Origin: an uncultured Kordia sp.
GTDB taxonomy: Bacteria > Bacteroidota > Bacteroidia > Flavobacteriales > Flavobacteriaceae
NCBI RefSeq assembly: GCF_947496985.1
Contig: NZ_CANMEZ010000002.1
Span: forward strand, 434,001 to 498,000
Length of the DNA stretch: 64,000 nucleotides
Direction: 5' to 3'
In this document: piece by piece, positions 17,167-19,856 of the stretch
How positions within the stretch are numbered: the stretch's first letter is position 1
Layout of the letters: each line of letters opens with the position of its first letter
The notes under the pieces: model-generated
What the model saw: only the letters and a program-made list of their open reading frames with translations
What the model was told of the DNA's origin: nothing
The model's database searches: none
Made by a program: the position numbers and the translations under genes

Positions 17167-18063
17167 ATGAAAACTAAAGTTCTTTTATTATTAACAATGC
17201 TTTTTGCAGTATCAATACAAGCACAGAAACGTGTAAATGGTGCAAGAGTTGGCTACATAGATATGGAATACATTTTAGAAAATGTAACTGCGTATCAGGA
17301 AGCAAATACACAATTAGAAGCAAAAGCAAATCGCTGGAAAGCTGAAATGCAAAAAAAGCAAGGCGAGATTGAGCAAATGAAAAAAAACCTCAGCGCCGAG
17401 CGTGTATTACTCACAAAAGAATTGGTAGATGAACGTGAAGAGGAAATACAAATTTTAGAAGAAGAATTGATAAAATATCAGCAAGATCGTTTCGGTCCTA
17501 ACGGAAGTTTAATGATTCAACGTCAAAACTTAGTAAAGCCAATTCAAGATCAAGTATTGAATGCTGTTCAAGAAATTGCAAAGAAAAGAAGATACGATTT
17601 CGTATTTGATAAATCAGCAGATGTTGTAATGTTATATTCGGCAAAGAAATTTGACATTAGTGATCTTGTTTTAAGAACAATTAATAGAGAAGTAAAACGA
17701 GAAGGAAGAGCTGCCAAATTAAAAGAAGCAAGCGAAAAGTCTAAGTTTGATGATGAAAAAGAAGTCAATCCAGAAGTAGAAGCTAAAAAACAAGCTGCTG
17801 CAGAAAAGAAAGCTGAACGTCAAAAAGTATTAGAGGAACGCAAACAAAAACGCTTAGAAGAACGTGAAGCAAAAAAGAAAGCATACGAAGAAAAACGTAA
17901 AAAATTAATTGCGGATCGTGAAGCTAAGAAAAAAGCTGCTGAAGAAAAACGTAAAAAACGAGCTGAAGACAAGAAAAAGAAAGATGAAGAGCGCAAAAAG
18001 CAGCAAGAAGAAAACAAAAATGAAGAAGAAAATGAAGGCAGCGGTGCTGGAAATGGAGAATAA
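17167..18063 (+). CDS. OmpH/Skp-family periplasmic chaperone with long charged tail
   Basis: A 298-residue secreted protein, signal MKTKVLLLLTMLFAVSIQAQ. Residues 30-165 are an OmpH/Skp domain (ARVGYIDMEYILENVTAYQEA, a coiled coil, then FDKSADVVMLYSAKKFDISD). After it comes a tail of about 110 residues made almost only of Lys, Glu, Arg and Ala (repeated KKKAEEKRKK-type units). Skp chaperones keep outer-membrane proteins unfolded on the way to BamA, whose gene is 50 bases upstream. The tail is longer than in standard Skp and is probably a single helix or coiled coil. One of two tandem paralogues. Confidence 0.93.
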   Translation: MKTKVLLLLTMLFAVSIQAQKRVNGARVGYIDMEYILENVTAYQEANTQLEAKANRWKAEMQKKQGEIEQMKKNLSAERVLLTKELVDEREEEIQILEEELIKYQQDRFGPNGSLMIQRQNLVKPIQDQVLNAVQEIAKKRRYDFVFDKSADVVMLYSAKKFDISDLVLRTINREVKREGRAAKLKEASEKSKFDDEKEVNPEVEAKKQAAAEKKAERQKVLEERKQKRLEEREAKKKAYEEKRKKLIADREAKKKAAEEKRKKRAEDKKKKDEERKKQQEENKNEEENEGSGAGNGE

Positions 18064-18108
18064 CAACAATTAAATATAAATAACACTTAAAGTAAATAAT
18101 TGAAAATC

Positions 18109-18621
18109 ATGAAACAAATGAAAAAGCTAATAGCTATTGCAGTCTTATTTTTTGGAGTAGTAAGTTTTACAAATGCACAAACTAAAGTTGCTCACATTAA
18201 TACGCAACAATTGATTAGCGCAATGCCGGAAATGAAAGCTGCTAAGACAGAATTCGACAAATTACAAGAATCTTTAGGAGCTGATATTCAAGCTTCAGTT
18301 ACAGAATACAGAAACAAATTAACACAGTATACAAACGAAGCTCCAACAAAAACTGACGCTGAAAACGACAGTAGAAAAAAAGAGTTAGTTGAATTAGAAA
18401 CTCGTATTCAAGAAGCACAAGCTGCTGCACAAAAAACTGCTGAGCAAAAGTATATTGACTTAACAAAGCCTATTCAAGAAAAAGCATTAGCTGCTATTCA
18501 AAAAGTTGCTAAAGCACAAGGATTTGCTTATGTACTTGATGCTACTCAAGGTTCAGGATTGCTACTTGCAGACGGAACTGACTTAATGGCTTCAGTAAAA
18601 AAAGAATTAGGTATTCAGTAA
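18109..18621 (+). CDS. OmpH/Skp-family periplasmic chaperone
   Basis: A 170-residue protein with signal peptide MKKLIAIAVLFFGVVSFTNAQ (an ATG three codons earlier is equally possible). The OmpH domain is complete: TKVAHINTQQLISAMPEMKAA, a central Gln/Ala/Glu-rich coiled coil, and FAYVLDATQGSGLLLADG. Its length is that of classical Skp/OmpH. It is 45 bases after the longer paralogue. In flavobacteria one Skp homologue (SkpA) has been found associated with the SprA translocon, which is also encoded in this window, but which paralogue that would be is not decidable here. Confidence 0.95.
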   Translation: MKQMKKLIAIAVLFFGVVSFTNAQTKVAHINTQQLISAMPEMKAAKTEFDKLQESLGADIQASVTEYRNKLTQYTNEAPTKTDAENDSRKKELVELETRIQEAQAAAQKTAEQKYIDLTKPIQEKALAAIQKVAKAQGFAYVLDATQGSGLLLADGTDLMASVKKELGIQ

Positions 18622-18642
18622 TTTTACAATACCATACACTAT

Positions 18643-18672
18643 AAAAAAGCTTCCAAATTGGAAGCTTTTTTT
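18643..18672. terminator. Bidirectional terminator between ompH and the RiPP precursor
   Basis: A perfect 12-bp stem (AAAAAAGCTTCC / GGAAGCTTTTTT, loop AAATT) has T runs on both strands. It is 21 bases after the ompH stop and 24 bases after the stop of the convergent precursor gene. Confidence 0.88.
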
Positions 18673-18696
18673 GTTTTACCTAAAATATCTATATTA

Positions 18697-18930
18697 TTAA
18701 CATCCTCCATGACAAGTTCTACAGTGTAACGGATCACTTAATGGATGATTATTCGTTAAACAGTTATTCGTGCCACATGCAGCAGTTCCACAATTAAAAG
18801 TGCCACAGTTAGCAGTTCCACAATTTCTGGTTGGACAATAAAATGTTATATAACCTCCTTTAACTTCTCCTAAGTTTGAAACGTTTGTTTTCCCTAATAA
18901 TAGTTTTCTACTTAATTTCTTTTTTTTCAT
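18697..18930 (-). CDS. Putative ribosomally made peptide (class I lanthipeptide-like) precursor with six TxxC repeats
   Basis: A 77-residue peptide; the ATG of MKKKKLSRKLLL was preferred over a GTG three codons earlier. Residues 1-26 form a leader of the Bacteroidota type (LLLGKTNVSNLGEVKGG), rich in Lys and Leu and ending in Gly-Gly, the usual cleavage site for peptidase-containing exporters. The 51-residue core has nine Cys and eight Thr. From core residue 3 to 31 it reads as six units TFYC, TRNC, TANC, TFNC, TAAC and TNNC, each separated by one residue (Pro or Gly), so Thr and Cys recur every five residues. A tail with LHCRTCHGGC follows. Thr dehydration and Cys addition would give four-residue methyllanthionine rings. 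No lanthipeptide dehydratase, cyclase, radical SAM enzyme or exporter is encoded in the window; the product identity is inference. Confidence 0.72.
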   Translation of the reverse strand: MKKKKLSRKLLLGKTNVSNLGEVKGGYITFYCPTRNCGTANCGTFNCGTAACGTNNCLTNNHPLSDPLHCRTCHGGC

Positions 18931-18958
18931 AATTTGCACTTTAATGTTTATAATATTT

Positions 18959-18966
18959 CAAATATA
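18959..18966 (-). promoter_or_regulatory. Candidate -7 element of the precursor peptide gene
   Basis: TATATTTG on the minus strand matches TAnnTTTG, 28 bases before the ATG. The region between (AACATTAAAG...) is A-rich as in other leaders here. No TTG lies at the usual distance. Confidence 0.45.
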
Positions 18967-19076
18967 ATACTATAAAACATGTGTCATATCGTACATTTTG
19001 CAGGATTAACATTCTTATATAAATTCTACTTTCAAATGATACACAAACGCTATTTTTTTTGCTTATTTTTACACTT

Positions 19077-19856
19077 ATGAGTAATTCCCCAATTGGCATA
19101 TTTGATTCTGGTGTTGGTGGCACATCTATTTGGAAAGAAATTCACAAGCTACTACCACATGAGAACACCATCTATTTGGCCGACAGCCAAAACGCTCCGT
19201 ATGGACCAAAAGGAAAAGAAAAAATCACGGAGTTAAGCATCAAGAATGTAGAATTTCTATTATCAAAAAATTGCAAAATCATTGTGGTTGCTTGTAACAC
19301 AGCTACCACAAATTCTATACAACAACTTCGGGAAACTTACGACATTCCGTTTATAGGAATTGAACCTGCCATTAAACCAGCTGCATTACAGACGAAATCC
19401 AACACGATTGGCATTTTGGCAACAAAAGGAACCTTATCAAGCGAATTGTTTCACAAAACGTCTGATTTGTATGCAAATGGCGTGAAAATAATTGAACAAG
19501 TTGGCGAAGGATTAGTTCCACTCATTGAAAACGGACGTATTGAATCTCCAGAAATGGACAAACTACTACAAAAATATCTAAAACCTATGCTTGATGCAAA
19601 TATTGATTATTTGGTATTAGGTTGCAGTCATTATCCCTATTTGATTCCAAAACTAAAAACGTTATTACCGAAACATCTAAAAATTATAGATTCAGGAATT
19701 GCGGTTGCCCGACAAACCAAAGCAATTTTAGCACAACATAGTTTACTTACTACTTCACAAAAAGAAAGCACCTGTACATTTTACAGTAATGGAAATCCTG
19801 AAATTTTAAATGATTTGATTGCTAATGAATTTTTAGCAACGAAACTACAGTTCTAG
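19077..19856 (+). CDS. murI: Glutamate racemase
   Basis: A 259-residue enzyme that makes D-glutamate for peptidoglycan. The ATG of MSNSPIGIFDSGVGG was chosen since GIFDSGVGG normally lies close to the start. The two catalytic cysteines are in VVACNTATT and LGCSHYPYLIP, and the LADSQNAPYGPKG segment is typical. Its stop codon overlaps the end of the convergent carbonic anhydrase gene by four bases. Confidence 0.97.
   Translation: MSNSPIGIFDSGVGGTSIWKEIHKLLPHENTIYLADSQNAPYGPKGKEKITELSIKNVEFLLSKNCKIIVVACNTATTNSIQQLRETYDIPFIGIEPAIKPAALQTKSNTIGILATKGTLSSELFHKTSDLYANGVKIIEQVGEGLVPLIENGRIESPEMDKLLQKYLKPMLDANIDYLVLGCSHYPYLIPKLKTLLPKHLKIIDSGIAVARQTKAILAQHSLLTTSQKESTCTFYSNGNPEILNDLIANEFLATKLQF

What the first reader, a model, noticed from the sequence alone, without database searches (positions are those of the whole stretch)
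18697..18930. Orphan RiPP precursor with six Thr-x-x-Cys units on an exact five-residue period
Seen directly: a 77-residue peptide with a Gly-Gly-ended leader and a core in which TFYC, TRNC, TANC, TFNC, TAAC and TNNC are each separated by one residue (DNA 18760-18846), so Thr and Cys each recur every five positions, ending in LHCRTCHGGC. Known: Bacteroidota class I lanthipeptide leaders have this Lys/Leu-rich form with a GG cut site, and T-x-x-C is the spacing of the smallest common methyllanthionine ring. Inference: maturation would give a ladder of six identical four-residue rings, which I do not know from a described lanthipeptide. Alternatives are a metal-binding or azole-containing peptide, also favoured by Cys/Thr.
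Basis: partly seen in the sequence, partly recalled or inferred. Interest (0 to 1): 0.87.

Follow-up and report, generated by a model that had tools for sequence, protein, structure and literature searches.

The report
Lanthipeptide precursor from a 200-gene library
This short gene very probably encodes a ring-studded secreted peptide, and it is one of more than two hundred related peptide genes scattered through a marine Kordia genome that seem to share one set of ring-forming and export proteins encoded elsewhere in that genome.

Summary
A 77-aa ORF on the MINUS strand (18697-18930) has a Gly-Gly leader and six TxxC units at exact period five. It is a real gene: orthologues beside murI in 4 of 11 Kordia genomes, a syntenic homologue elsewhere in 11 of 11, dN/dS about 0.03-0.17.

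It is not an orphan. 92 stretches that I fetched (10.7% of the genome) hold 207 precursors of the same leader type. One LanB dehydratase was found, split, in a hub with LanC, HlyD and the only C39-ABC exporter found; the hub is syntenic in all 11 genus genomes. No YcaO was found, and none of the four SPASM radical-SAM proteins found nears CefB.

Cysteines in the 207 cores are coupled to upstream Ser/Thr: 908 of 1013 can each claim their own Ser/Thr 3-6 residues N-terminal, against 525 with the peptides reversed and about half in shuffles. That fits N-to-C (methyl)lanthionine rings.

Best reading: a class I-type lanthipeptide precursor modified and exported in trans: six four-residue rings plus two or three C-terminal rings. 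In 9 of 11 syntenic homologues a Gly-rich stretch replaces the ladder; the C-terminal module is what persists. Chemistry, shared processing and function are untested.

The parts
18697..18930 (-). Precursor peptide gene, 77 aa plus stop
   Evidence: orthologues beside murI in 4 of 11 genus genomes (own included) and a syntenic homologue at a second site in 11 of 11; dN/dS 0.03-0.17 from the NG86 values
18853..18930 (-). Leader, residues 1-26, with L-x-L-x-K-x5-L (L10, L12, K14, L20) and Gly-Gly at 25-26
   Evidence: Sequence; motif as described for Bacteroidetes class I LanA leaders in PMC7268733 (passages); NF038153 14.7 bits, below the 22-bit cut-off
18760..18846 (-). Six T-x-x-C units at exact period five, residues 29-57; proposed six four-residue methyllanthionine rings
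   Evidence: ring closure is inference
18700..18759 (-). C-terminal module LTNNHPLSDPLHCRTCHGGC, residues 58-77; proposed rings S65-C70 and T72-C77, C73 with T59 or left free
   Evidence: This module, not the ladder, recurs with changes in all 15 homologues aligned; ring assignment is inference
18643..18671 (.). Palindromic terminator-like hairpin (14-nt arms) between the convergent OmpH-like gene (+) and this gene (-)
   Evidence: consensus match only

Best explanation
The gene encodes a class I-type lanthipeptide precursor that is modified in trans. Inferred steps: the L-x-L-x-K-x5-L leader is recognised by the one LanB found in the genome, which is split into a 751-aa glutamylation protein and a 308-aa elimination protein; these dehydrate up to nine Ser/Thr. 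A LanC then adds the Cys, each mainly to the dehydrated residue three to five positions N-terminal, giving six four-residue rings in a row and two or three rings in the C-terminal module. The C39 domain of the hub's ABC exporter cuts after Gly-Gly, and the peptide leaves with the HlyD partner. The same hub would serve more than 200 other dispersed precursors. Shown: gene, leader type, conservation, ring-compatible spacing, one LanB and one C39-ABC exporter found, hub synteny. Inferred: that these enzymes act on this peptide, ring topology, secretion. Function is a guess: a secreted competition or signalling peptide in which the conserved C-terminal module is the active head and the ladder a stiff, replaceable stalk.
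For: One Lant_dehydr_N match in the own genome and exactly one in each of 11 genus genomes. Hub LanC, LanB_N, LanB_C, HlyD and C39-ABC confirmed by Pfam and found in the same order in the 10 other genus stretches, the C39-ABC gene being wholly or partly inside 9 of those 10. The other three C39 matches of the genome are a 200-aa stand-alone C39 protein and two VKOR proteins, none with an ABC domain. Hub LanB_N matches NisB structures, and hub LanC keeps WCYG and CHG in alignment to a LanC-like structure. One of the hub's two precursors carries GTNNCGTNNCGSNNC. 207 precursors: 200 with GG, 206 with Cys in the core, 3 Cys in all leaders together. Cys matched one-to-one to upstream Ser/Thr at distance 3-6: 908 of 1013, reversed 525, shuffles about 50%; 190 less redundant cores 89.5% against 50.0%. 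Ser/Thr is at least Cys in 204 of 207 cores, pooled shuffles 182.6 on average and 193 at most. The finding and the five other ladder-bearing homologues have exactly 9 Ser/Thr and 9 Cys. In 120 genomes of the family, leader hits over the cut-off occur in 4, all among the 10 with LanB.
Against: No maturation gene lies beside this precursor; the hub is on another contig. The peptide is under the cut-off of the lanthipeptide leader model. In 9 of 11 syntenic homologues the ladder is replaced by a Gly-rich stretch, with more Ser/Thr than Cys. C73 has no free Ser/Thr partner at 3-8 residues. Three other LanC-like places exist and could serve some precursors. Of the 10 LanB genomes in the family sample 6 show no leader hit over the cut-off, and of 17 with any leader match at E <= 0.1, 11 lack LanB, all 11 under the cut-off. 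PF14028 (LanB_C) and radical-SAM proteins without a SPASM match were not sought genome-wide. Nothing here shows expression or chemistry.
Confidence: 0.77

Rival explanations
1. A radical-SAM RiPP of the CefA kind (Cys-every-fifth peptide), cross-linked by a SPASM maturase.
For: NF038108 CefA matches residues 31-59 at 20.3 bits; TIGR04149, an rSAM-modified peptide family, matches 8 of 150 sampled genome-mates at E <= 0.1.
Against: NF038108 is under its 30-bit cut-off and matches 1 of 150 sampled members, this peptide. Four SPASM proteins were found in the genome at E <= 0.01; all four were scanned, and the best scores shown are 71.4 bits for CefB (cut-off 600) and 74.3 for TIGR04148, which I take for the TIGR04149 partner by recall (cut-off 300); three of the four lists were cut at 25 rows. 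The directional Ser/Thr coupling is not what I would expect of sactipeptides.
Confidence: 0.06
2. Unmodified Cys-rich secreted peptide, disulfide-bonded or metal-binding.
For: Cys-rich core, His in the tail; secretion would need only the GG leader and the C39 exporter.
Against: Cys spacing should then not depend on Ser/Thr, yet it does and in the N-to-C direction (908 against 525 of 1013 when reversed). The one replacement in a T/C column of the ladder is Thr to Ser.
Confidence: 0.09
3. Azole-containing peptide (LAP type) made by a YcaO cyclodehydratase.
For: Cys- and Thr-rich core.
Against: No YcaO match in the own genome at E <= 0.01, while the same search rings in 5 of 14 control genomes.
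Confidence: 0.02
4. Lanthipeptide, but processed by a different LanC or partly by another system in the genome (C15 LanC locus or the class V-like C1 locus) rather than by the hub.
For: Four LanC-like places; the C15 LanC stands with three precursors and a nucleotidyltransferase; a HopA1/APH/LanC locus exists.
Against: One Lant_dehydr_N gene and one C39-ABC exporter were found, both in the hub; one of the hub's own precursors has the same ladder units.
Confidence: 0.15

Closest known systems
Bacteroidota class I lanthipeptides with LxLxKx5L-GG leaders (pinensins and the Pedobacter lusitanus peptides are the examples I recall or saw only cited)
   Same: Leader motif, GG site and a C39 peptidase often in the cluster (PMC7268733, passages); LanB and LanC
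   Different: Here one hub faces more than 200 dispersed precursors, and this core is a period-five ladder
Prochlorosins / synechococsins of marine picocyanobacteria
   Same: Many precursor genes that can be scattered over the genome, one promiscuous synthetase (29 and 79 precursors: PMC12328550 and PMC10783134, passages)
   Different: Those are class II (LanM) with Nif11-family precursors; here LanB/LanC and a different leader
RiPP-rich Kordia genomes in Microbiome 2024, PMC11118758 (section 7 read; passages)
   Same: Names Kordia as an example of RiPP-rich Flavobacteriaceae (rSAM-modified peptides and lanthipeptides), with LanC and nucleotidyltransferase beside precursors; reports up to 176 RiPP precursors on one Bacteroidota genome
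   Different: The parts I read do not describe the single LanB hub, this ladder peptide, the directional ring signature or its orthologues; its supplements were not available
CefA/CefB Cys-every-fifth system (NCBIfam NF038108/NF038107)
   Same: Cys at every fifth residue
   Different: Below the CefA cut-off, and none of four SPASM proteins nears CefB

Membership tests
Class I lanthipeptide precursor, Bacteroidota type | LxLxKx5L leader motif (PMC7268733) | tested here: met
   L10-x-L12-x-K14-x5-L20 read in the sequence
Class I lanthipeptide precursor, Bacteroidota type | Gly-Gly site and a C39 peptidase exporter in the genome | tested here: met
   GG at 25-26; one C39-ABC exporter
Class I lanthipeptide precursor, Bacteroidota type | LanB and LanC encoded by the same genome | tested here: met
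   not beside this gene but on another contig
Class I lanthipeptide precursor, Bacteroidota type | Core with Cys and ring-compatible Ser/Thr | tested here: met
   9 Ser/Thr, 9 Cys; 8 of 9 Cys matched at 3-6 residues against 0 of 9 reversed
Class I lanthipeptide precursor, Bacteroidota type | (Methyl)lanthionine in the product, made by LanB and LanC | not testable with these tools
   Needs mass spectrometry
NCBIfam NF038153 (class I lanthipeptide leader L1a) | Score at or above the curated cut-off of 22 bits | tested here: not met
   14.7 bits; 35 other places of this genome pass it, of 147 listed
CefA (NF038108) | Score at or above 30 bits, with CefB maturase | tested here: not met
   20.3 bits; best CefB score shown 71.4 against 600 among the four SPASM proteins found
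Prochlorosin-like | Nif11-type leader and LanM synthetase | tested here: not met
   No Nif11 family among the matches at E <= 10; all four LanC-like proteins stay under the LanM cut-off of 304 bits (99, 83.6, 275.7 and 75 bits); the dehydratase found is LanB
Linear azole peptide | YcaO cyclodehydratase | tested here: not met
   0 matches in the genome at E <= 0.01

The most novel reading that the evidence does not exclude
A class I counterpart of the prochlorosins: one split LanB, one LanC and one C39 exporter modify and secrete well over 200 different lanthipeptides encoded all over one Kordia genome, with the same hub and large leader families in all 11 genus genomes examined, and some of the peptides, like this one, are stiff rods of six to nine identical small thioether rings carrying a conserved head.
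Probability: 0.6. Interest if true: 0.8.

Novelty: new variant of a known kind. Interest (0 to 1): 0.62.

Why it matters
If one LanB/LanC/C39 set really handles more than 200 substrates, it would be a class I enzyme set of very broad tolerance and a natural combinatorial peptide library, larger than the synechococsin example (79 precursors) quoted in PMC10783134. It is directly testable: one set of enzymes, a library of substrates with known natural sequences. The ladder would give a rigid repeat of one ring type, useful for asking whether LanC zips rings in a fixed direction. It also warns that mining limited to the neighbourhood of LanC misses most such precursors: 9 of 207 here lie within 10 kb of a LanB or LanC place.

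Tried and rejected
Azole route: no YcaO. CefA/CefB route: none of four SPASM proteins is near CefB. Relatives in the plasmid collection: none at E <= 0.01. Phage families: none. PDB relatives of the precursor: none at E <= 10. RNA families in 18000-19800: none over gathering score. Pfam Pentapeptide_2 is below cut-off (16.4 against 26.4 bits) and reflects the period only. Promoter of the TAnnTTTG type: one copy 36 nt upstream of this start; 29 of 206 precursors have one within 150 nt against 23.3 in shuffles and 24 on the reverse strand, though 16 of the copies crowd at -45 to -31, so a subset may be real; not claimed here. My first attempt to read the orthologue peptides ignored strand and was wrong for minus-strand loci (its table of neighbouring ORFs stands); redone. 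Structure prediction and fold search were not used.

Rows dropped: searches gave 154 intervals, and I added one broad interval by hand near the hub precursors (155 in all; counted); they fell into 154 frames, 7 of which were outside 40-140 aa and were dropped before building the leader model from 147. Of the model's 231 rows at E <= 10, 211 had E <= 1e-3; 3 without a Met start and 1 duplicate were dropped, leaving 207. The model was built from the hits, so its E-values are circular for most of them (145 of 207; 62 were new); the GG, Cys and spacing tests are the independent support. In the 7 peptides without GG the core was taken to start at residue 31.

Papers: PMC11118758 section 7 read whole plus passages; PMC7268733, PMC7477175, PMC10734526, PMC10783134, PMC12328550, PMC9576775 passages only; other papers search listings only. 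'Not in print' is not claimed.

Full report
WHAT IS THERE. The ORF lies on the minus strand at 18930-18697, between an OmpH-like (Skp) gene on the plus strand and a racemase gene, murI by its place and Pfam family. A 14-nt-arm palindrome at 18643-18671 sits between it and the convergent OmpH-like gene. The 77-aa product has a Lys-rich leader ending Gly-Gly and a 51-aa core with nine Ser/Thr and nine Cys. The ladder is far from chance and is not a fresh tandem duplication at DNA level.

IT IS A REAL GENE. All 11 genus genomes hold a match at E <= 1e-5. Four of them (G000, G004, G008, G009) have the gene beside murI; all 11, G000 included, have a second syntenic homologue beside a kinase-like 208-aa gene named by eye ('A' and 'B' are my names for the two groups). 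NG86 values over A give dN 0.054-0.251 with dS 0.58-2.02, that is dN/dS about 0.03-0.17; several dS values are near saturation. Named relatives confirmed in the public genomes are 4 loci, all Kordia, one of them K. jejudonensis. The host is therefore taken to be a Kordia species.

WHAT IS CONSERVED. In the four A peptides every ladder Thr/Ser and Cys is kept, with one Thr to Ser change, while 8 of 17 other ladder positions vary (Fisher p = 0.043; four related sequences, so a modest test). Pairwise, T/C codons show 3-7 synonymous against 0-1 amino-acid changes. Two losses look compensated: in G006 the Thr of RTC is lost and a new Thr appears in ETGWC; in G008 the Ser of the tail moves two positions (read). 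All six ladder-bearing homologues keep 9 Ser/Thr to 9 Cys; exact equality occurs in 16 of the 207 own-genome cores, the two ladder peptides included. Against a simple story, 9 of the 11 B homologues lack the ladder and carry a Gly-rich stretch, with 10-13 Ser/Thr and 6-7 Cys. The leader and a tail like xCxTxxHPxSDPxHCRTCxxxC persist. So the tail is the better candidate for the active part, the ladder for a variable stalk (inference).

IT IS ONE OF MORE THAN 200. A search of the own genome with this peptide gave 30 places at E <= 10. The class I lanthipeptide leader model gave 147 places at E <= 10, 35 of them over its cut-off, with only 150 of 246 first-look candidates scored; some of the weak ones are plainly other genes. 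I fetched 92 stretches around these and around the LanC genes, 584,704 bases or 10.7% of the genome. A leader HMM built from 147 peptides found 231 rows at E <= 10 among 5588 segments; 207 remained after filtering, at 92 separate places on 18 contigs, 37 of them singletons. 200 of 207 have GG at residues 15-46; 206 of 207 cores have Cys; all leaders together have 3 Cys. The same HMM on 628 segments of the window finds only this gene (E 3.8e-11, next 0.017). NF038153 matches 106 of 150 sampled members at E <= 0.1.

THE MACHINERY IS ENCODED IN TRANS. The own genome has one Lant_dehydr_N match, four LanC-like places, one C39-ABC exporter plus a 200-aa stand-alone C39 protein and two VKOR proteins with a weak C39-like stretch, and no YcaO. 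The LanB sits in a hub on contig C1: a sigma-70-like gene, a TPR protein, LanC (405 aa), LanB_N (751 aa), LanB_C (308 aa), a TPR-AraC regulator, two precursors, one with GTNNCGTNNCGSNNC, then HlyD and the C39-ABC exporter. The 10 other genus genomes have the same order, at 84.7-97.0% identity for LanC, LanB_N and LanB_C; some have two TPR-AraC genes; the C39-ABC gene is wholly or partly inside 9 of the 10 stretches, the tenth stretch ending before it. LanB_N aligns with NisB (1.8e-23) and with a thiopeptide-type biosynthesis protein structure (2.3e-51). LanC aligns with 8byk, keeping WCYG and CHG, the zinc-ligand motifs as I recall them. The 699-aa part of the exporter that I held aligns from residue 2 to 699 with the ABC-type bacteriocin transporter 4ry2.

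OTHER GENERA. In 120 genomes of the family (drawn evenly, each from a different genus), LanB occurs in 10; leader hits over cut-off occur in 4, all among those 10. Leaving out the own genome, three of three by chance from 9 of 119 is about 3e-4 (my arithmetic). On the other side, 6 of the 10 LanB genomes show no leader hit over the cut-off, and of 17 genomes with any leader match at E <= 0.1, 11 lack LanB, all under the cut-off and most of them inside long frames. One LanB genome, G087, also has precursors scattered over three contigs.

THE RING SIGNATURE. If Cys are captured by dehydrated Ser/Thr N-terminal to them, each Cys should have its own Ser/Thr a few residues upstream. Over 207 cores, maximum matching at distances 3-6 pairs 908 of 1013 Cys (89.6%), against 525 (51.8%) when each core is reversed and about 50% in shuffles; all Cys of a core are paired in 118 of 207 cores, 7 when reversed. 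At distances 3-8 it is 972 of 1013 against 638. Distances 7-10 show a smaller asymmetry (597 against 495), so Ser/Thr lying early in the core explains at most part. Leaving out 7 ladder peptides changes little (852 of 948 against 509). 190 less redundant cores give 89.5% against 50.0%. Ser/Thr are enriched at -3, -4 and -5 from Cys (z 6.0, 4.5, 4.9) and also at +2 (z 8.8), depleted at -2 and +4 (z -3.5, -3.9). I read the +2 peak as the start of the next ring (inference). This argues against plain disulfide or metal-binding peptides and for N-to-C thioether rings.

THIS PEPTIDE. Likely rings: T29-C32, T34-C37, T39-C42, T44-C47, T49-C52, T54-C57, S65-C70, T72-C77. C73 has no free partner at 3-8 residues (8 of 9 Cys matched) and may pair with T59, 14 residues away, or stay free. 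That is eight or nine rings; chemistry untested.

LITERATURE. PMC7268733 (passages) describes the LxLxKx5L leaders, often with GG and a C39 partner, and limits its search to seven genes around the LanC. PMC11118758 (section 7) already names Kordia as RiPP-rich and gives up to 176 precursors for a Bacteroidota genome, so abundance itself is not new; its supplements could not be read. PMC10783134 (passages) gives 79 precursors for one SyncM. The library searched holds no text with 'Cys-every-fifth'.

VERDICT. A class I-type lanthipeptide precursor, part of a very large dispersed set with one hub: a new variant of a known kind. Shared processing of all 207 by one hub is the bold part and is inferred.

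Noticed in passing
L065 / G000:C2:202284: A paralogue whose core is a longer ladder: nine Cys at exact spacing five, each with Ser three residues before it (CPSDGCPSDFCPSNGC...).
   Followed up: partly
L134 2399-7268 (G000:C1:147000-160000): A HopA1-family protein, an APH-type kinase and a LanC stand together, as I recall for class V lanthipeptide synthesis, downstream of a 460-aa protein full of GPTGTQGCTQP-like repeats that could be a giant precursor.
   Followed up: partly
Upstream of the precursors, about 20-30 nt before the start codon: TTATTAA stands at -34 to -15 in 35 of 206 precursors against 2 of 308 other ORFs of 200 aa or more taken from their first ATG; perhaps a shared regulatory or translation element of a subset. 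The gene of this finding lacks it.
   Followed up: partly
L083 / G000:C3:237625: The one precursor of 207 without Cys: a core of Thr-rich TFTHTFTDT-like repeats behind a normal GG leader.
   Followed up: no
L128 4723-7977 (G000:C15): LanC with a nucleotidyltransferase and three precursors; the kind of locus that PMC11118758 mentions for Kordia.
   Followed up: partly
L135 6312-8192 (G000:C5): A 626-aa LanC-like protein beside a 1734-aa protein that reads like an NRPS and a glycosyltransferase-like gene; named by eye except the LanC match.
   Followed up: partly
L164 1306-2957 (G000:C5:321132): A radical-SAM/SPASM protein like cyclophane-forming maturases (YhhB/FxsB, below cut-off) follows a 106-aa ORF containing FGGK, possibly a separate RiPP system.
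   Followed up: no
L151 and L152 (G000:C1:46865, C11:44250): Two VKOR proteins with an N-terminal C39-like stretch; their role is unknown.
   Followed up: partly
L177, L182-L186 (G087, another genus): A second genus with dispersed precursors of the same leader type and a LanB hub, including CPTQGCPPPTQGCVTQGC-type repeats.
   Followed up: partly
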